This document shows, piece after piece, positions 26,133 through 36,822 of a DNA stretch of 64,000 nucleotides. Source of the stretch: a bacterium. GTDB taxonomy: Bacteria; Zhuqueibacterota; Zhuqueibacteria; Residuimicrobiales; Oceaniaggregativiventaceae. Positions within the stretch are counted from its first letter, which is position 1; each line of letters begins with the position of its first letter. The notes under the pieces are model-generated. The model was given only the letters and a program-made list of their open reading frames with translations. It searched no databases and was not told the origin of the DNA. A program made the translations under genes and the position numbers. The stretch spans positions 124,001 through 188,000 of the forward strand of contig JAKQNP010000002.1 of the NCBI GenBank assembly GCA_029565675.1, in the 5' to 3' direction.

Positions 26133-27545
26133 TCATCGTGTTGGTGCGATGGCGAGAAATGCTTGAATCAGGATTTCGATCTCCTCGTCTTCGATCGTGC
26201 GAAAGTCGAGGTAGAGGTGATCAGATTTGATATAGCCCAGCACGGGCGTGGTTCCGCAGCGCAAGCGGCCGGCCAGGTCGGCCGCAGAACCGGCTTTGGG
26301 CTTGATCGCCAGCGCGCAGCTGGGCAGTTTTTCGAGCGGCAGAGCCCCGCTGCCAGTTTGCGAAACCGAATCGACTCTTTCGATCTCCAGCCATCCGCTG
26401 CAGGCTGCCTGCAAACGCTGCTCCACAATTTTCGCGCGCGCCTCGATCCTATTGGCTGGCTCAGTTAAACGGGCAATCGCCCGAACTTGCGTCAGATCAG
26501 ACGAGAAAAAGAGTTTAAGGGTTGCTTCCAGCGCGGCAAAAGTCAATTTGTCACAGCGCACCACCCGCATCAATGGATTGGCGGCGATCTGCCCGATCGC
26601 TGTCCGGTTTCCCACCAGCAAACCGCATTGCGGACCTCCAAGAACTTTATCGCCGCTAAAAGTCACCACATCAGCGCCTGCCTGGAGGCTGTCCTGCACC
26701 AACGGTTCATAAGGCAAACCGAATTGCTGGAGGTCCACGATAACTCCACCGCCCAAATCGTGCAGCACGGGGATACCGTGTTGATGCGCCAGTGCGCAAA
26801 GATCAGCCACGGAAACCTCGGCGGTGAATCCCATCACCCGATAGTTGGACGTGTGGGCGACGACAATAACCGCAGTTTTTTCATTGATCGCCTCGCGAAA
26901 ATCGGCCAGTTTGGTTTTGTTGGTTGTTCCCACTTCACGCATGATGACACCGCTTTTTTCCATGATCTGCGGTATGCGAAAGGAACCACCGATTTCAATC
27001 AGCTGACCGCGCGAAATGATCGCTTCGCGTCCGGCTGCCAGTGTATTGAGGGCAAGAAAGACCGCTGCGGCGTTGTTGTTGACCGCAACAGCCGCTTCGG
27101 CACCGGTAAGCTGACAAAGCAGATCGGCGATATGAGAGTTGCGTTGTCCTCGTTTGCCGGATAAAAGATCGACTTCCAAATTGCAGTAACCCTGCATGGC
27201 CTGTTGAACCTGTTCCTGTGCTGCTGGCGAATAAGGTGCTCGGCCCAAACCGGTATGCAAAACAATACCGGTGCCGTTGATCGTTCGCCGCAGACTCGGC
27301 CGCTGCCATGCCGCCACTGCTGCTATACAATGATCGATGATCGCACGCGACAACTCTTTTCTCGAGGGCGTTGCATCGCTGTCGTTGTGCAAAAGCTGCT
27401 TTTTGTTCTGTTCCACAGCGGCACTGAGCCAACTTTTGACTCGCTCGCGATCGAATCTTTCAAGTATTGCTTTGATTTCGGGGTCGAGCAAAAGCGCATC
27501 GATCGAAGGAATCTTTTGCAGTCGTTCAGCAGAAGCGCGGCTCAC
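26133..27545 (-). CDS. selA: L-seryl-tRNA(Sec) selenium transferase
   Basis: A 470-residue PLP enzyme that turns Ser-tRNA(Sec) into selenocysteinyl-tRNA(Sec) using selenophosphate. The PLP site 'VTFSGDKVLGGPQCGLLVG' (Lys near residue 299) and the N-terminal tRNA-binding part 'LQKIPSIDALL' are intact, and the length is normal. The start is GTG 27545 with GAGGAAACAG upstream; it overlaps the upstream membrane gene by 4 bp (GTGA). selB, selD and the tRNA(Sec) gene are not in the window, although selA and selB are often adjacent. The neighbouring membrane protein has no known link to selenium. Confidence 0.93.
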   Translation of the reverse strand: MSRASAERLQKIPSIDALLLDPEIKAILERFDRERVKSWLSAAVEQNKKQLLHNDSDATPSRKELSRAIIDHCIAAVAAWQRPSLRRTINGTGIVLHTGLGRAPYSPAAQEQVQQAMQGYCNLEVDLLSGKRGQRNSHIADLLCQLTGAEAAVAVNNNAAAVFLALNTLAAGREAIISRGQLIEIGGSFRIPQIMEKSGVIMREVGTTNKTKLADFREAINEKTAVIVVAHTSNYRVMGFTAEVSVADLCALAHQHGIPVLHDLGGGVIVDLQQFGLPYEPLVQDSLQAGADVVTFSGDKVLGGPQCGLLVGNRTAIGQIAANPLMRVVRCDKLTFAALEATLKLFFSSDLTQVRAIARLTEPANRIEARAKIVEQRLQAACSGWLEIERVDSVSQTGSGALPLEKLPSCALAIKPKAGSAADLAGRLRCGTTPVLGYIKSDHLYLDFRTIEDEEIEILIQAFLAIAPTR

Positions 27546-28514: not shown

Positions 28515-31484
28515 TTATTTCATCAGCACCATTCGCCGTGTTTGTTGAAAGGTTTCGGTCGGTGAACCTGCCTGCAGCTGGTAAAAATAGACACCGCTGG
28601 GAACCGCGAGTCCTTGTTGATCCCGGCCGTCCCAGACAACTGCATGTGAGCCTGCCTTGAATTCAAGATCAGACAAGACCCGAATCGGCTGACCAAGGAG
28701 GTTAAAAACCGTCAACTCTACTTTGGCGGCAATCGGCAGTGAGAAACGGATCTCCGTGGAAGGATTGAACGGATTGGGATAATTTTGCTCTAGGGCGAAC
28801 GCGATGGGCAGCGATTTTGCGTCTTCGATCTCGGTGGTCGATTGGACAAGAGTGATCCGCAAATCCGAAACCGCTGTGCTGTTGCCGACGGCAATCATGG
28901 TAGGTCGATCACTCGATTCGTCCGCGGCACTGGGGTAGGAGATCGACAAGGTATAGCTTCCAAACGGCATTTCTTCGAAGAGGAAAGCGCCATCTTCGCG
29001 AGAACTTGTGGCTGCTGTTACCTGCTCTTCGGTGCTAAGCGTCAACAAAACACCCTCGATGGGTGCGCCGTTCTGGTCTTTTACATTGCCAGCAATCCAG
29101 TAAGCTCCTTGTTGTTGCGGCGCAAGAGAAAAATTGACGCCGTCCCTGCTTTGCCCGGCTTGGATCTGGATGGTCTGAGCATCTCGCCAGTGGTAGGCAT
29201 TGTCATAATACTCGCCGATATATCCCCTTGCTCGACAGATCACGTAATAAGTGCCGTCCCTGAGGCCGGCAAGTTGGTAGCTGCCATCTGCAGTGGACAG
29301 GGAATGGTGAGCCCGGCCGAACTGCGCAGGGATTGCGATCACCATTGCACCCTCGACAGGGGTGTCGTTTTGTTCATCCACCACAACACCGCTGATCTGT
29401 CCGCCGATTTTTATCCTCGATCTGAGAACAAAGTCGATATCATTGATGGCAGATACGCCGTCCAGTTCGATGGGAGTGGCATTGGTACGGTCATTGGCGC
29501 CGTCGTAAAACTGCTGGTCAGTCCCGCGTGCTTGAGCGACTGCGATAAAAACGCCGGCAGGCAAACCGTTTAACTGCCACATTCCGGATGGATTGCTGCG
29601 GGTTGCGCGAATGACCGGGCCATCGAGCTGATACACGTTGATGATTGCGGAAGCAACAGGTTCATTGTTTTCTGCAGCAATCACCTTGCCGCTCATGCTG
29701 CTGCCTGTCTGCAGGTCAAAATCGATGGCCGTGATTTCCTGATCGGTCTCGACGTGCACAGCCGTTGCAGAGGTTAAATCCGCAGCATGATCATAGTACT
29801 GCGCTAGATAGCCGGTTGCTCCGGCGCGCATGAGATACGATCCCTCCGGCAAAGACTCAAATCGAAATGAGCCGTCTTCTCCGGTGAAGGTGTTAAAGAC
29901 CGCTCTCGACGCGTTTTCAGCAAAAACGCTGACCCGAGCGCCTGCAATTCCTGTCTGTGTCGCCGCATCTCGCACAATGCCGGTAATGCTGCCAAGAGAG
30001 GTGAGCGCGAAATCGGCGATGAGATGTTCCCCGGCGGCAGGTTGTAATGGTTTGGCGAGCATTGGATTGGTGGTGTTTTCAAACCACATCATTTCAAAAC
30101 CAGCTGCTATTGCGTGTACGATATAGATACCTGGCTGAACCGATAAGACATATTGTCCATCTTCATCGGTCTCAGCCTGTTGCGCAAATGGCCTCTGAAA
30201 ATCGAATAGACCTCGTCCATTCGACAGCCCATACGCCAAAACTCGAGCACCGGCAATCGGCTGCTGATTGGACTTACTGGTCACTCTTCCGACAATGGCG
30301 CTCGTCCGGGAGAGTGTAAAATCAATCCCGTCCACCTGGGCGTAATCGATGATTTCAACCGCTTGGGCATCGCTCAACTTTTCGGCTTCCGGGTAATATT
30401 CGTTGAGGTATCCGGAGAGTTCGGCTATAACGATATAACGGCCGTTGAGGAGGCCGGTCAGCTCATAATGACCATTGCTGTTGCTGATCGCATGGGTGCG
30501 GAAGAGGATATTGCCGCGGTTGTATGCCGAGATGTGAGCACCGGCAAGAGGCAGTCCTTCTTGATCTGTCACCCGGCCCGAGATGACGCCGCTCTGCTGT
30601 AACGCAAAGTCAACTCCTTGCCGCTCTTCTGCAGAAGCCAATTCGATTGGTGTGGCTTCTTGGAAGGTGTTGACGTGGTTATAGTATTGCGGAGCATAGC
30701 CAGTCAGAAATGCCTGTACCACATAGCTGCCTGGAATAAGAGAGTCGATCGCAAAAGAACCGTCTGCACCGGTAACGGCATGGACCACAAATGGAAACCG
30801 GCTGACAAGCATCGCTGTTACCGTGGCACCCGCAAGCGCTGAGCCTGCAGCATCGGTGACGCTCCCTTTCAACGAGGCGCTGGCAGTCGGATTAATCGCG
30901 ACCATTGCGCTGCCGCGATAGGTGCGGCCGTCTATTTCTGCAACGGCGATTGTCCGGCCGATCGCCATCATCGAGCCGGCGGTGAACAATCCATTTTCAT
31001 TGATCTGTCCCAATACTCCGGGTTCCACAAACCAGCGCAAGGATTGGGGAGTGAGCAAGACGCCGTTTCGGCTGATGGCTTTGGCTTCGAACTGAACGGT
31101 TTCTCCAAATGGTACACTGACCTTTTCCGGATGAACCTGGATTTCGATTTCGTGCTGATTGCCCTCGCCAATTTTGACCAGAGCGGTGCCAACGATTTCT
31201 TCACCATCGATCGTTGCAGTGGCTCGGACTTCACCCTCCGTAGGTGCCAGCCCGGCGATGAAGAAGCCATCCTGGGTGATTCTGCCCAGATTCTCAGGCA
31301 TAAGGGACCAGACCAATTGCGCTCGTACCGGCTCTTGGTCGCTGTTGAAGAGCTGGGCCTCAAATCGAATCGTTTCGCCCGGCCGCATTTCCGCCTGCTG
31401 CGGGCGAACGAGAACCGTGAAGGCCGAGCTGATTCCGCTCAAGAGCAGAATCAGGACAGCACAAAACCGATATCGATTTTTCAT
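28515..31484 (-). CDS. Large secreted protein with seven carboxypeptidase-regulatory-like repeats and sorting domain
   Basis: A 989-residue exported protein. A signal peptide ends near 'GISSAF' (residue 22). Two Ig-like repeats follow (about 25-200, each with 'LVWSLMPENLGRITQDGFF' or 'LRWFVEPGVLGQINENGLF' and 'IDG' turns). Then come seven tandem repeats of about 95 residues (200-890), each with 'GxVxDxxGxPIAGAxV', a 'G..GSY.L.GLP.G.Y' turn and most with an aromatic 'EYY/QYY' spot and a closing 'IDFTL'. This is the carboxypeptidase D regulatory-like fold. The last 90 residues ('LEQNYPNPFNPSTEIRF', then 'GVYFYQLQAG') form the type IX-like sorting domain also seen in the 12660 gene. A surface adhesion or substrate-binding role is likely; no catalytic domain is visible. 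Confidence 0.88.
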   Translation of the reverse strand: MKNRYRFCAVLILLLSGISSAFTVLVRPQQAEMRPGETIRFEAQLFNSDQEPVRAQLVWSLMPENLGRITQDGFFIAGLAPTEGEVRATATIDGEEIVGTALVKIGEGNQHEIEIQVHPEKVSVPFGETVQFEAKAISRNGVLLTPQSLRWFVEPGVLGQINENGLFTAGSMMAIGRTIAVAEIDGRTYRGSAMVAINPTASASLKGSVTDAAGSALAGATVTAMLVSRFPFVVHAVTGADGSFAIDSLIPGSYVVQAFLTGYAPQYYNHVNTFQEATPIELASAEERQGVDFALQQSGVISGRVTDQEGLPLAGAHISAYNRGNILFRTHAISNSNGHYELTGLLNGRYIVIAELSGYLNEYYPEAEKLSDAQAVEIIDYAQVDGIDFTLSRTSAIVGRVTSKSNQQPIAGARVLAYGLSNGRGLFDFQRPFAQQAETDEDGQYVLSVQPGIYIVHAIAAGFEMMWFENTTNPMLAKPLQPAAGEHLIADFALTSLGSITGIVRDAATQTGIAGARVSVFAENASRAVFNTFTGEDGSFRFESLPEGSYLMRAGATGYLAQYYDHAADLTSATAVHVETDQEITAIDFDLQTGSSMSGKVIAAENNEPVASAIINVYQLDGPVIRATRSNPSGMWQLNGLPAGVFIAVAQARGTDQQFYDGANDRTNATPIELDGVSAINDIDFVLRSRIKIGGQISGVVVDEQNDTPVEGAMVIAIPAQFGRAHHSLSTADGSYQLAGLRDGTYYVICRARGYIGEYYDNAYHWRDAQTIQIQAGQSRDGVNFSLAPQQQGAYWIAGNVKDQNGAPIEGVLLTLSTEEQVTAATSSREDGAFLFEEMPFGSYTLSISYPSAADESSDRPTMIAVGNSTAVSDLRITLVQSTTEIEDAKSLPIAFALEQNYPNPFNPSTEIRFSLPIAAKVELTVFNLLGQPIRVLSDLEFKAGSHAVVWDGRDQQGLAVPSGVYFYQLQAGSPTETFQQTRRMVLMK

Positions 31485-31752: not shown

Positions 31753-34284
31753 TCAGGAATGGAAAAACTTGGCAAAAGCTGAAAAAAGTTCTTCTTGCGG
31801 CCCGACAAGAGGATCGCATTCGGGCAAAGAGTGAAGAAAACGCTTGCCATAAGATTTTTTCACAATGCGGTTGTCGTAGATAAGCACAGCGCCGCGATCG
31901 GAAGTGCTGCGAATCAGCCGTCCAAATCCCTGGCGAAATTTGATAACCGCCAGCGGCACCGCATAGTCAATAAAGGGATTGCCGCCCATTTTTTCAATCG
32001 CTTCATAGCGGGCTTCGATCACCGGTTCGTTGGGGACTTTGAATGGCAAGCGAGTGATGATCACCAATTGCAGCGCATCGCCGACGACGTCGACGCCTTC
32101 CCAGAAGCTGTCGGTGGCAAAAAGGGCGCTGTTGCGGCTGTCGCGAAAACGGTTGAGCAAGCTGTGCCGGTTTTCGCTTCCTTGCTTGAGAGTCTGGATG
32201 CCGAGCATTTGCAGGGAGCTGGCGAGTTTATCATAGACCGAGGTCAGCAAGCTGTAAGAAGTAAAGAGGACGAATGCCCGTCCATGGCTGATCGACAGCG
32301 CACGAAAGATAAATTTTTCCATTTCGCTGGAGAAACGCGATTGGTTGGGCTCGGGGGTGTCTGTGGGAATGCCGAGCAGAACTTGCTTATGGTAGTCGAA
32401 AGGTGAAGGCAGCACCTGGGCAAATCGGCGGTCCGGAGAAATTTCCTGCAAACCGATGCGGTTTTGCAGAAAATCAAATTTCTGATCAACGGTAAGAGTT
32501 GCTGAGGTCATCACCACCGTATCGAAAGAATCATAAACAGCCTCCCGCATCATGCTGCCGATATCGAGCGGCGACAATGCCAAGCGAACAATTGCCGGAC
32601 CGCGGTCATTGGACCGTATCTCAATCCAGCGGATGTGTTCTTCATCTTCACCAAAGAGAATATCGTCCAAATCTTCTGCTGCAAGAGCCAGACGGTCGGT
32701 CTGTGCGCGGAGTTCGATCAACAGGGAAGACCAATCTTCGCCGGCGTGATCTTGTGCGCGGATCAGCTCTTCCTGCAGGAAAGAGAGCTTGGCGCTGAAA
32801 TGCTTGATTGCGGCGATCGTCTCATGTATCAGATCCACAAATTGCAGCTCTGCAAACAACTCGTTTCTGATTGCAGGGGTAAGCCTGACTTTAATTTCGC
32901 GGGCAGCAGAAAAGTCGGGCTGTTGTTGCGCGAGTCGACAAAGATAATCCATGCTTGCGTGGATTTGTTCCGTCAAACGGTTCAGCTGGTTGACCAGTGT
33001 GTGGCTGACCAGCATGTCGATGCGGTCGACGGTTTCATGCGGCAGCAAGGAATGCACTTCATGGAGGCGATACATCGCCGTGTGCAGCAGGCCTTTCACT
33101 TTGCCATGTCTTTCGCGATGCAAGCGATTGAGGATGCGCACCAGTCCAAAGCGGGTGATGCGTTTGCCGAAATAATCGGTTGCCACATCTTCGACATGAT
33201 GAGCTTCGTCAAAGATGATTCGTTGGTAGGGCGGCAGAACTCCGCTTTCGCTGCCGTATCCAAGCCGATTTTTAATGGCAAGGTCAGCGAAGAGAAGGTG
33301 ATGGTTGGTGACGAGGATATGGGCGCGCATCGCTTGCCGGCGCGCTTTATTGACAAAGCAGTCGCGAAAGTGGGCGCATTTGCTGCGTGTACAGGTATCG
33401 CTTTCCGCCGCAAAACGCTCCCAGATCAGTTCGTTGGGAATGAAAGCCAAATCGGATTTGCTGCCATCCCGCGTTTGGTGCGCCCAGCGGAGCAAGTCTT
33501 CGACCATGTCGGCGTCTTCCTCTTCGATGTCGCTGTGGCCGAGCTCGCTGTCCAATTCATCCACTTTGCGAAGACAAACGTAATTGCTCCTCCCCTTGAC
33601 CAACACCGCAGTGAATTCTTCCGGCAACACCTTTTGCAGAAAGGGGATATCTTTTTTTAACAGCTGTTCCTGCAGATTGATGGTGTTGGTCGAGATGACG
33701 ATTCGTTCTTTGTTGTGCAAAGCCCAAAAAACAGCGGGCAGAAGATAAGCGATCGTTTTCCCGGTTCCGGTCCCCGCTTCGATGAGAGCGATTTTTCTCT
33801 GATTGAGAGCGCGGCACAACAAAGAGATCATCTCTACTTGCAGGGGTCGATTTTCATAACCGGCAAGAGCGTCGGCGATCGAACCCCCGGGTTGCAGCAG
33901 TTTGGCGATCTCTTCGCTGTCCAGATCGACCTGTTCCTTTTTGCTGAAAGGCTCGACCACCACATAGAGATCATCAACTGCATTGTTGACGATATAAAAA
34001 GCGACACCAAAAGGATGAAGATGACCGGCAATCGCCAAATCGGCTTCTGATGGACGCAAATGGTCTGAAGGGTGGTTGTGGATAACCACATCGGCTTCCT
34101 GGGCAATCTGCAGCACAGCCGGGACCGCCGATTCGTTTCCGCGGGCGACGGCCTGGACGTCGTGGACAATCAGGTCTTCTTCGGTATAACCGACAAAAAA
34201 CACTTCATTGCCGCCTGCGGCCGCAATTTCCAGCTGAATTTTCTTTGCTGCTTGTGGAGCGATGTAGCGGTTCATTTTGGCCAT
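31753..34284 (-). CDS. JAMM/RadC-like domain fused to DinG/XPD-type helicase
   Basis: An 843-residue cytoplasmic protein. Residues 1-115 form a JAB/MPN domain with a complete JAMM zinc site: E27, H69-x-H71, S79 and D82 ('HNHPSDHLRPSEAD'), closest in style to RadC. The rest is a superfamily 2 Fe-S helicase: Walker A 'AGTGTGKT' at 170-177, Cys237, Cys298, Cys303 and Cys309 for the [4Fe-4S] cluster, DEAH at 359-362 and motif VI 'QGFGRLIRS' near 787. DinG-like helicases unwind 5'-to-3' DNA, including R-loops and G-quadruplexes. In Firmicutes the N-terminus of DinG is an exonuclease; here a JAMM domain takes that place. Whether it cuts isopeptide bonds or binds DNA is unknown. It follows the MBL nuclease gene by 24 bp. 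Confidence 0.9.
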   Translation of the reverse strand: MAKMNRYIAPQAAKKIQLEIAAAGGNEVFFVGYTEEDLIVHDVQAVARGNESAVPAVLQIAQEADVVIHNHPSDHLRPSEADLAIAGHLHPFGVAFYIVNNAVDDLYVVVEPFSKKEQVDLDSEEIAKLLQPGGSIADALAGYENRPLQVEMISLLCRALNQRKIALIEAGTGTGKTIAYLLPAVFWALHNKERIVISTNTINLQEQLLKKDIPFLQKVLPEEFTAVLVKGRSNYVCLRKVDELDSELGHSDIEEEDADMVEDLLRWAHQTRDGSKSDLAFIPNELIWERFAAESDTCTRSKCAHFRDCFVNKARRQAMRAHILVTNHHLLFADLAIKNRLGYGSESGVLPPYQRIIFDEAHHVEDVATDYFGKRITRFGLVRILNRLHRERHGKVKGLLHTAMYRLHEVHSLLPHETVDRIDMLVSHTLVNQLNRLTEQIHASMDYLCRLAQQQPDFSAAREIKVRLTPAIRNELFAELQFVDLIHETIAAIKHFSAKLSFLQEELIRAQDHAGEDWSSLLIELRAQTDRLALAAEDLDDILFGEDEEHIRWIEIRSNDRGPAIVRLALSPLDIGSMMREAVYDSFDTVVMTSATLTVDQKFDFLQNRIGLQEISPDRRFAQVLPSPFDYHKQVLLGIPTDTPEPNQSRFSSEMEKFIFRALSISHGRAFVLFTSYSLLTSVYDKLASSLQMLGIQTLKQGSENRHSLLNRFRDSRNSALFATDSFWEGVDVVGDALQLVIITRLPFKVPNEPVIEARYEAIEKMGGNPFIDYAVPLAVIKFRQGFGRLIRSTSDRGAVLIYDNRIVKKSYGKRFLHSLPECDPLVGPQEELFSAFAKFFHS

Positions 34285-34308: not shown

Positions 34309-35265
34309 CTATATTTTGCCTTCTGCATCGAGCGACTGGGCGGAAAACCCCAATTCCTGCAGATAGTGAGGAAAATCGTCAAAACCATGGGTTGTATAGA
34401 TCTGTTGCGGATTGACGGTTTTGACAAGGCTTTGCAGTTCATCAAAATCCGCATGATCGCTCAACGCGATCATGTGATCTGCGCGAAAGCGAAAGCCGGA
34501 TGCGCGGTTGGCCCAGCCGGACAAAAAAACCGTGCGCGGCCTGGCGACTTTGCGGAACACCGGTGAATTGCAGATGTGCGGCGGAAACAGCAAAACCTCT
34601 CCTGGAGGAAGGGCGACTTCGTGCCATAAAGCGCACCGGTCGAACTGAGCACCAAACTCGCGATAGACCTCTGCCATTTGCCAGATCGAGGAATGGACCC
34701 GCGTCGGATATCCCAGATCGCCGAGGATTTTCATCGCTTCCTGTCCTTTGCCGAGCGAATAGGCGAGGACGACAGGCGTCTGGCCGCGTCGGAAGGTATC
34801 GTCGATAAATTCTTTGAGTTCATTGACCAGTTGCAGCCATGACGATTTGATACGATATTCTGGCCGGCCGAAGGTCGATTCCATGATCAAGATGTCGGCT
34901 TGCGGAATTTTAATATGTTCAGCGGTAAGGCTCGGGCGCAGTTTGAAATCGCCCGTGTAGAGCAGCGAGCGGCCGCCGTGTTCGATTCGAATCATCGCCG
35001 ATCCGAGGATGTGGCCGGCGGGAAAAAGCTCGATCTGCAGTTCATTCCACTCAAGAGTTTGGCCAAACGGCAACGCGATCGTTTGGCGTTGCTTGCCGCG
35101 AAGTGCAAAAAAGCGTAAAGTGGCAGGAGTGGCCAGAACCTTTTGGTGGTTGCGCAGGTGGTCGGTATGGCCATGGCTGATAAAGGAGAATTCGACGGCG
35201 CGGGTGGCGTCGAGCCAAAAATCATAGGGGCGAATTTTGATACCCGCTGAATGGTAATCAAACAT
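34309..35265 (-). CDS. Metallo-beta-lactamase-fold exonuclease-like protein
   Basis: A 318-residue protein of the MBL/beta-CASP type related to ligase-associated DNA exonucleases and RNA-processing CPSF-like enzymes. The zinc motif 'HGHTDH' is at 31-36, followed by 'PAGHILGSAMIRI' near 85, 'YTGDFK' near 105, 'IMESTFG' near 124 and 'ALSDHADFDEL' near 268. All the metal-binding positions are present. Its gene sits just upstream of the helicase gene (24 bp), which suggests joint work in DNA or RNA processing, though that is an inference. Ligase and Lhr helicase, the usual partners of the ligase-associated form, are not nearby. Confidence 0.82.
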   Translation of the reverse strand: MFDYHSAGIKIRPYDFWLDATRAVEFSFISHGHTDHLRNHQKVLATPATLRFFALRGKQRQTIALPFGQTLEWNELQIELFPAGHILGSAMIRIEHGGRSLLYTGDFKLRPSLTAEHIKIPQADILIMESTFGRPEYRIKSSWLQLVNELKEFIDDTFRRGQTPVVLAYSLGKGQEAMKILGDLGYPTRVHSSIWQMAEVYREFGAQFDRCALWHEVALPPGEVLLFPPHICNSPVFRKVARPRTVFLSGWANRASGFRFRADHMIALSDHADFDELQSLVKTVNPQQIYTTHGFDDFPHYLQELGFSAQSLDAEGKI

Positions 35266-35305
35266 GGCAATCGAGGATTAGGGTTCAGCCCCGGCAAAAC
35301 ACGGT

Positions 35306-35908
35306 TCAGGCAGCACCTTGGATATCCCGGTGTTGCATCGAGGCGGCGACTTGGCGAATAAAATAGCTGTGAATGGCGGGATCATCAGTCAATTCTGGAT
35401 GAAAGGTCGAAACCAGTATACGATCGGATTCGGCCAACACCACATTGCCGTCGTGCCAGGCGAGCGGCTGTACCGATTTGCCGAATCCAGTGATTTTCGG
35501 AGCGCGGATAAAGACCCCTTCGAAAGCCACCTTCTGATCCGGCAAGTGCAATTCGAGATTGGCGACAAACGAATCGATTTGCCGGCCATAGGCGTTGCGC
35601 TGCACCGCGATATCGATCAACCCCATCGCGTCGAGATTTGGCAAGATGGGGCTGGTGCCCAATAGGATCAGTCCGGCACACGTGCCATAGATGGGTTTTG
35701 TCCGGCCGAACTGCACAACCTGGTCCCATAAATGGTGTTTGTGCAGCAACTTGGCCAGAGTGGTGGATTCACCGCCCGGAATGATCAAGCCATCAGAGCT
35801 GTGCAGCGTCGCTTTGGTTTTTACTTCGACTGCCTTAGCGGCCAACCCTTCGATCATCCGTATATGGCGGGCAAAATCGCCTTGCAGAGCGAGAACGCCG
35901 ATCGTCAT
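35306..35908 (-). CDS. pdxT: Pyridoxal 5'-phosphate synthase glutaminase subunit
   Basis: A 200-residue class I glutamine amidotransferase that feeds ammonia to PdxS. 'GVLALQGDFARH' at the N-terminus, 'PGGESTTLAKLL' near 46-57, the nucleophile Cys in 'GTCAGLILL' near 78 and the C-terminal His/Glu pair ('FHPELTDD') are intact. The frame is open to 36052 but that part overlaps pdxS; the ATG at 35908 begins at the conserved N-terminus. It lies 29 bp after pdxS. Confidence 0.95.
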   Translation of the reverse strand: MTIGVLALQGDFARHIRMIEGLAAKAVEVKTKATLHSSDGLIIPGGESTTLAKLLHKHHLWDQVVQFGRTKPIYGTCAGLILLGTSPILPNLDAMGLIDIAVQRNAYGRQIDSFVANLELHLPDQKVAFEGVFIRAPKITGFGKSVQPLAWHDGNVVLAESDRILVSTFHPELTDDPAIHSYFIRQVAASMQHRDIQGAA

Positions 35909-35937
35909 TGAAATCCATCGATTATTGCCAAACGGCT

Positions 35938-36822
35938 TCACCAGCCGCGGGCAGCCATTTTTTCTTCTTCTTTTAGGGTTGCGATGTCGATTCCCGGCAT
36001 TGGATCGCCGAGATCTTCCGAAATACGGGCGATGAGGTCGAAGTCCTGACAATGGGTCACAGCGGAAACAATCGCTTTTGCCCGCTTGGCCGGATCGCTC
36101 GACATAAAAATACCGCTGCCGACAAAAACCGATTCCGCACCCAACTGGACCATCAGCGATGCATCGGCAGGCGTGGCGACTCCACCCGCTGAAAAATTGG
36201 GTACCGGCAGTTTGCCGCTCTTTTTGATCTGCCGCAAGAGTTCGACAGGCGCACCGAGTTTTTTCCCCTCAGTCACCAACTCTTCATTGCCGAGCAAGGT
36301 CAACCGCCGAATGCCGCTTTGGACAGCGCGCATATGGCGGACAGCTTCCACGATGTTGCCCGTACCCGCTTCTCCCTTGGTGCGGATTAAGGCCGCACCT
36401 TCAGCGATGCGGCGCAGAGCTTCGCCCAAATCGCGACAACCGCAGACAAAAGGCACCTTAAATGAAAATTTATCGACATGATATTCTTCATCAGCCGGCG
36501 TGAGCACTTCGCTCTCGTCAATAAAGTCGACCCCCAAGGCCTGCAATACCTGTGCTTCAGCAAAATGTCCGATTCGACATTTCGCCATCACCGGGATGGT
36601 AACGACTTTTTGGATACTCCGGATTATTTTGGGATCGGACATACGTGCCACACCGCCCTGCTGGCGAATCTGTGCCGGAATGCGTTCCAAAGCCATAACG
36701 GCAACGGCGCCAGCATCTTGGGCGATCTTGGCTTGATCGGCGTTGGTGACATCCATGATGACGCCACCTTTCAGCATTTCCGCCAGTCCGATTTTAACTT
36801 GCAGCTCTTTTTCAATCGACAT
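35938..36822 (-). CDS. pdxS: Pyridoxal 5'-phosphate synthase subunit PdxS
   Basis: A 294-residue TIM-barrel enzyme that makes PLP from ribose 5-phosphate, glyceraldehyde 3-phosphate and ammonia. The N-terminal '[19 protein letters not shown]' and '[20 protein letters not shown]' and the two active-site Lys regions ('[13 protein letters not shown]', '[12 protein letters not shown]') are intact, as is the C-terminal 'AARGW'. AGGGAG precedes the ATG. PLP made here would serve SelA and other PLP enzymes. Confidence 0.97.

What the first reader, a model, noticed from the sequence alone, without database searches (positions are those of the whole stretch)
31753..34284. JAMM/RadC-like metalloprotease domain fused to a DinG-type Fe-S helicase
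The N-terminus has all residues of a JAMM site (E27, H69, H71, S79, D82), and the rest is a complete Fe-S helicase (four Cys, Walker A, DEAH). DinG of Firmicutes has an exonuclease in this place. A JAMM domain could act on DNA, as proposed for RadC, or remove a ubiquitin-like tag from a protein near the fork. It is cotranscribed with an MBL-fold nuclease, so the two genes may form a repair module.
Basis: partly seen in the sequence, partly recalled or inferred. Interest (0 to 1): 0.75.

Follow-up and report, generated by a model that had tools for sequence, protein, structure and literature searches.

The report
RadC-type JAMM domain on DinG helicase
The gene encodes a DNA-unwinding enzyme with a metal-binding RadC-type domain at its front end; this combination is real, strictly conserved in several bacterial phyla and already described in print, but what the front domain cuts is still unknown.

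Summary
The ORF at 31753-34284 (- strand, 843 aa) has an N-terminal JAMM/MPN domain followed by a full DinG/YoaA-type Fe-S helicase. AlphaFold2 folds residues 1-148 at pLDDT 89. The best PDB match is RadC, and nearly all others are JAMM/MPN proteins. All metal-site residues (E27, H69, H71, S79, D82) are invariant in 74 fused homologues from three phyla, more so than the Fe-S cysteines. The fusion occurs in 57 of 63 genomes of the window's class (Calditrichota). Other classes of that phylum carry exonuclease-DinG (or a degenerate version) instead.

It is not new as a kind. Cheng 2025 named 'RadC-like DinG' and modelled zinc. Iyer et al. noted RadC-DinG fusions, their positional equivalence to nucleases, and proposed nucleic-acid processing.

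What I add: the helicases probably share one origin (tested, not rejected). The window's genome and 14 other good genomes of the class carry the fusion but have no detectable E1 (ThiF) protein, which argues strongly against removal of a ubiquitin-like tag there. The MBL neighbour is conserved in 30 of 40 class loci but was not found in two other phyla.

Best reading: a fork- or lesion-directed 5'-3' helicase with a RadC-clade metal hydrolase working in cis, probably on nucleic acid. The activity is untested.

The parts
31753..34284 (-). Whole gene: RadC-like DinG, 843 aa (P0001)
   Evidence: full-length relatives at 44-74% identity
33949..34284 (-). RadC-type JAMM/MPN domain, residues 1-112
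   Evidence: AlphaFold2 pLDDT 89; Foldseek RadC 2qlc then other JAMM proteins; RadC profile match 96%
34204..34206 (-). E27, catalytic Glu of the JAMM site (EVF, as in RadC REVF)
   Evidence: invariant in 73 of 73 fused homologues with this position; hhalign places it against the RadC Glu
34039..34080 (-). JAMM metal motif H69-N-H71-P...P78-S79-x-x-D82
   Evidence: invariant in 74 of 74 fused homologues
31753..33867 (-). DinG/YoaA-type SF2 Fe-S helicase, residues 140-843
   Evidence: NCBIfam YoaA E 5.5e-179; Foldseek DinG 6fwr E 2.6e-39
33754..33780 (-). Walker A, EAGTGTGKT, residues 169-177
   Evidence: invariant residues
33358..33576 (-). Fe-S region, Cys237/298/303/309
   Evidence: C303 and C309 invariant; C298 is S/T in 10 of 43 class members; C237 is S in 4 of 11 Sumerlaeota
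33199..33210 (-). DEAH box, residues 359-362
31819..32307 (-). Helicase_C_2 domain, residues 660-822
   Evidence: Pfam E 2.8e-48
34309..35265 (-). MBL-fold (SNM1/CPSF73-like) nuclease-type gene, 24 nt upstream; class-level operon partner
   Evidence: TIGR04122-related, below its cut-off; PDB matches CPSF73, SNM1A, Apollo; linked in 30 of 40 class loci

Best explanation
This is the Calditrichota form of 'RadC-like DinG'. Its helicase half belongs to the XPD/DinG/YoaA family and should translocate 5' to 3' on single-stranded DNA at stalled forks, gaps or R-loops (inferred from the family). The N-terminal RadC-clade JAMM domain binds a metal ion, probably zinc, and is an active hydrolase (inferred from an invariant site). 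It acts in cis on the strand or adduct that the motor presents, most likely on nucleic acid, in the place that the DEDD exonuclease holds in ExoDinG. It is the only DinG-family helicase found in this genome and works without chi (HolC). In this class it is usually made from an operon with an MBL-fold nuclease-type enzyme that may process the same lesions.
For: Fold and motif. Metal site 100% invariant in 74 fused proteins of three phyla, beyond the Fe-S cysteines, so catalysis or metal binding is under strong selection. Sequence and structure place the domain with RadC. ExoDinG or degenerate ExoDinG occupies the same slot in other classes of the phylum. Published reasoning for nucleic-acid processing from positional equivalence and lack of a ubiquitin groove (PMC5512222). 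ExoDinG of B. subtilis degrades ssDNA and R-loop RNA (PMC12525004); YoaA-chi is a 5'-3' fork helicase (PMC9826845). Single DinG-family match in G000. HolC absent in the class. MBL linkage 30 of 40.
Against: No RadC-clade JAMM is shown in the papers read here to cut DNA or RNA; every characterised JAMM cited there cuts (iso)peptide bonds. Cheng's DALI search found metalloproteases and no nucleases (PMC11981726). Foldseek likewise returned only MPN/JAMM proteins among the best matches. In the helicase tree ExoDinG and RadC-like DinG are separate lineages, so this is not an in-place domain swap.
Confidence: 0.47

Rival explanations
1. The JAMM domain is a peptidase for proteins on DNA. The XPD-like motor runs into a DNA-protein crosslink or tight roadblock, unfolds it, and feeds it to the JAMM site: FANCJ and SPRTN in one chain.
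For: FANCJ, a helicase of the same family, unfolds crosslinked protein so that SPRTN can cut it (PMC12279946). The domain is a bona fide JAMM fold with all protease residues, and JAMM enzymes with known activity are peptidases.
Against: Known JAMM peptidases are specific for ubiquitin-like C-termini; no broad JAMM protease is known to me. RadC is argued to lack the tail groove. No data on bacterial substrates.
Confidence: 0.18
2. The JAMM domain removes a ubiquitin-like tag from a protein near the fork.
For: Fold matches to Rpn11, CSN5, PfJAMM1-SAMP2 and bacterial Ubl-JAB complexes.
Against: No E1/ThiF match in the window's genome or in 14 other genomes that are at least 90% complete, all with the fusion; the same search rings in 12 of 14 controls. 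Ordinary Prok-JAB genes in the class are in several genomes sited beside ThiF, and G000 has none. RadC-type HNHP motif.
Confidence: 0.05
3. The domain is a metal-stabilised binding or regulatory module (partner docking, DNA-end binding), not an enzyme, as for inactive MPN subunits.
For: No phenotype is known for RadC; E. coli radC mutants show normal sensitivity to DNA damage (as cited in PMC11981726).
Against: The catalytic Glu and Ser, not needed for structure, are as invariant as the metal ligands; inactive MPN- domains typically lose them (own knowledge).
Confidence: 0.2
4. The JAMM-DinG and the MBL protein form a dedicated two-gene repair module.
For: Adjacent, same strand, 24 nt gap here and in 30 of 40 loci of the class at 41-76% MBL identity. 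The MBL protein matches SNM1A and Apollo.
Against: The MBL was not found near the fusion in Sumerlaeota or the deltaproteobacterial phylum; missing in 10 of 40 class loci; in several genomes of the window's order pdxT lies just upstream too, so general synteny contributes.
Confidence: 0.25

Closest known systems
RadC-like DinG (Cheng 2025, PMC11981726; Desulfuromonas soudanensis)
   Same: Same domain order, same E/H/H/D site, YoaA-like helicase, no HolC in the organism
   Different: Calditrichota is not named in the paper's main text; class-level MBL operon; some members lose one Fe-S cysteine
RadC / UPF0758 (2qlc)
   Same: HNHPSG...PSxxD motif, EVF strand, closest structure
   Different: RadC has N-terminal UPF0758/HhH parts and no helicase; standalone RadC is present as a separate gene in the same genome
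YoaA (E. coli)
   Same: Best NCBIfam helicase match; 5'-3' Fe-S helicase
   Different: No JAMM in YoaA; scores under the family cut-off; chi partner absent
ExoDinG (S. aureus, B. subtilis)
   Same: N-terminal hydrolase fused to DinG; alternative carried by other Calditrichota classes
   Different: DEDD exonuclease instead of JAMM; helicase in another clade
Archaeal and bacterial JAMM deubiquitinases (AfJAMM, PfJAMM1)
   Same: Fold and metal site
   Different: No Ubl/E1 context; RadC-type motif (HNHP)

Membership tests
RadC-like DinG (Cheng 2025) | N-terminal RadC-like domain followed by DinG-like helicase | tested here: met
RadC-like DinG (Cheng 2025) | Conserved E, H, H, D centre | tested here: met
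   74 of 74 fused homologues
RadC-like DinG (Cheng 2025) | Fe-S domain with three or four Cys | tested here: met
   four Cys in the window protein; at least three in relatives
RadC-like DinG (Cheng 2025) | No HolC in the organism | tested here: met
   0 of 63 class genomes over the cut-off
JAMM/MPN+ metalloenzymes | MPN fold with E...HxH...SxxD | tested here: met
JAMM/MPN+ metalloenzymes | Bound zinc and hydrolytic activity | not testable with these tools
   needs purified protein
RadC family proper (NCBIfam RadC) | Full-length score over cut-off, UPF0758 N-terminus | tested here: not met
   19.8 bits against a cut-off of 180; the domain only is RadC-like
YoaA equivalog | NCBIfam cut-off 680 bits | tested here: not met
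   596.9 bits
ExoDinG | N-terminal DEDD exonuclease | tested here: not met
   JAMM in its place
Ubiquitin-like deconjugation system | E1 in the genome | tested here: not met
   no PF00899 in G000; control rings in 12 of 14
Ubiquitin-like deconjugation system | E2 in the genome | tested here: inconclusive
   no PF14461 match, but no control rang
Ligase-associated repair exonuclease (TIGR04122), upstream gene | Score over 325 bits and adjacent ligase | tested here: not met
   213 bits; neighbours are pdxT and dinG

The most novel reading that the evidence does not exclude
A single bacterial polypeptide that clears proteins covalently or tightly bound to DNA: an XPD-type motor unfolds the adduct and a RadC-type JAMM site cuts it without any ubiquitin-like tag.
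Probability: 0.13. Interest if true: 0.85.

Novelty: new member of a known kind. Interest (0 to 1): 0.36.

Why it matters
The biochemical role of the RadC JAMM clade, one of the most widespread in bacteria, is unknown. Here the domain is tied to a helicase, strictly conserved, and present in genomes with no detectable E1, so its substrate can be sought at the fork without the ubiquitin question. Lineages that carry exonuclease-DinG in its place offer a natural comparison.

Tried and rejected
Considered and rejected: (1) chance motif or frame artefact, excluded by conservation and fold. (2) In-place replacement of the exonuclease by JAMM on one helicase gene: the tree puts the ExoDinG of the other Calditrichota classes in a separate clade with a Bacillota protein (98% SH-aLRT), so a whole-gene difference fits better. 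A single clade for all fused helicases is not rejected (p-AU 0.45) but is not proved; long rows L032 and L034 are unplaced. (3) Defence-system membership: PADLOC finds only type IV DinG through the helicase. (4) A conserved neighbour outside the class: none recurs beyond close relatives (families named: kinases, phosphatase, esterase). (5) Standalone RadC beside the fusion: 2 of 20 wide loci, likely coincidence. (6) The E2 search was uninformative, as no control rang. (7) Promoter and terminator scan at chance level. (9) The RadC critique and the 2011 deaminase-fold paper are not held and were read only through citing papers.

Full report
Observation. The ORF lies at 31753-34284 on the minus strand and encodes 843 aa. 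Residues 147-843 are a complete DinG/YoaA-type helicase; the closest solved structure to the full-length model (pLDDT 86) is E. coli DinG 6fwr. A profile of 28 relatives finds RadC 2qlc in the PDB at 2.4e-6 and AfJAMM as the next, non-significant hit. AlphaFold2 gives residues 1-148 at pLDDT 89.1 with an alpha-beta order consistent with MPN, and Foldseek returns RadC first and then Rpn11, CSN5, PfJAMM1 and bacterial JAB enzymes. Profile comparison with the class's own standalone RadC gives 96% probability and aligns EVF to EVF and HNHPS...PSxxD to the same motif.

Conservation. Full-length fusions were gathered from whole genomes. By my count, 57 of 63 genomes of the window's class show the JAMM part together with the helicase; by my count at least 31 of 40 Sumerlaeota do, 23 of 247 genomes in the phylum of L065, and 10 of 58 in a fourth, unnamed phylum by the JAMM profile with 795-1011 aa frames. 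In 74 aligned fusions from the first three groups E27, H69, N70, H71, P72, P78, S79 and D82 are invariant (one truncated row lacks the E27 position), whereas C298 is S/T in 10 of 43 class members and C237 is S in 4 of 11 Sumerlaeota. The JAMM site is therefore kept more strictly than the Fe-S ligands. Such a pattern is expected of an enzyme, not of a relic.

Evolution. The other classes of the phylum encode DinG proteins of about 950 aa that match only from about residue 115. Of 12 examined, 10 carry a clear DEDD exonuclease motif (DxETTGL) and two (L079, L080) a degenerate N-terminus. In a helicase tree the exonuclease forms make one clade (98%) and the JAMM forms of the class another (99%); JAMM forms of all phyla lie together apart from one or two long unplaced rows, and a single JAMM clade is not rejected (p-AU 0.45). 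So the two architectures are alternatives at phylum scale, each with its own helicase lineage.

Context. The MBL-fold gene 24 nt upstream is next to the fusion on the same strand in 30 of 40 class loci with enough upstream sequence, but was not found beside it in Sumerlaeota or the deltaproteobacterial phylum. It resembles CPSF73, SNM1A and Apollo and TIGR04122 below its cut-off. In several genomes of the window's order pdxT lies upstream of it as well, so part of the linkage is general synteny. Outside the class no recurrent partner appeared.

Test of the ubiquitin-tag reading. PF00899 (ThiF/E1) gives no match in the window's genome and none in 15 of the 39 genomes of the class that are at least 90% complete (G000 included), while the same search rings in 12 of 14 control genomes. 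All 15 carry the fusion. Prok-JAB genes elsewhere in the class (G005, G039, G062 and others) lie within about 1.5 kb of a ThiF gene, and G000 has no such gene. This argues strongly against a Ubl-deconjugating role, at least in these genomes. It rests on detection of the Pfam family and on assembly completeness. HolC (chi) is also absent, so the YoaA-chi mode of fork recruitment does not apply; the same was noted for RadC-like DinG by Cheng 2025.

Mechanism. Shown: fold, intact metal site, intact motor motifs, distribution. Inferred from family: 5'-3' ssDNA translocation (YoaA-chi, PMC9826845) and a role at blocked forks or R-loops (B. subtilis DinG, PMC12525004). Inferred from conservation: metal-dependent hydrolysis. 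The substrate is not known. Nucleic acid is favoured by the RadC clade, the lack of E1, and positional equivalence to nucleases (the argument of Iyer et al., PMC5512222). Protein is favoured by the known chemistry of JAMM enzymes and by the FANCJ-SPRTN precedent, where a helicase of this family unfolds a crosslinked protein for a metalloprotease (PMC12279946).

Comparison with the known. Cheng 2025 (PMC11981726) defines RadC-like DinG, with AlphaFold3, zinc and the E/H/H/D site, and says no experiment exists. Iyer et al. 2017 state the DinG/Rad3 fusion and the nuclease hypothesis, citing their 2011 paper. The window protein meets every tested defining feature. Novelty is therefore limited to a member in a phylum not named in that paper's main text, its near-universal presence there and in Sumerlaeota, the E1-free genomes, and the MBL operon.

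Noticed in passing
L079 and L080 (genomes G052, G051, same phylum): DinG proteins of about 950 aa whose N-terminal region has lost the DEDD exonuclease motif, resembling the published pExoDinG group.
   Followed up: partly
G000:C62:331252-331614 (L138): Standalone RadC in the same genome and on the same contig, besides the fused domain.
   Followed up: partly
L148:5504-6280 and L160:12652-14166: Standalone RadC genes lie within a few kb of RadC-like DinG in two distant genomes; Sumerlaeota RadC has a long N-terminal extension (about 500 aa in all).
   Followed up: no
G000 and 14 other class genomes: No ThiF/MoeB/E1-family gene detected, which raises the question of how thiamine and molybdopterin sulfur carriers are activated there.
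   Followed up: no
window 34309-36822: pdxS, pdxT and the MBL gene sit directly upstream of the fusion on the same strand; pdxS and pdxT ORFs overlap as called.
   Followed up: partly
window 28515-31484: Next gene downstream encodes a 989 aa protein, seemingly secreted, with repeated carboxypeptidase-regulatory-like segments (judged by eye) and a T9SS-like C-terminal tail (NYPNPFNPST).
   Followed up: no
window 26133-27545: Likely selA (selenocysteine synthase), judged by eye from its translation.
   Followed up: no
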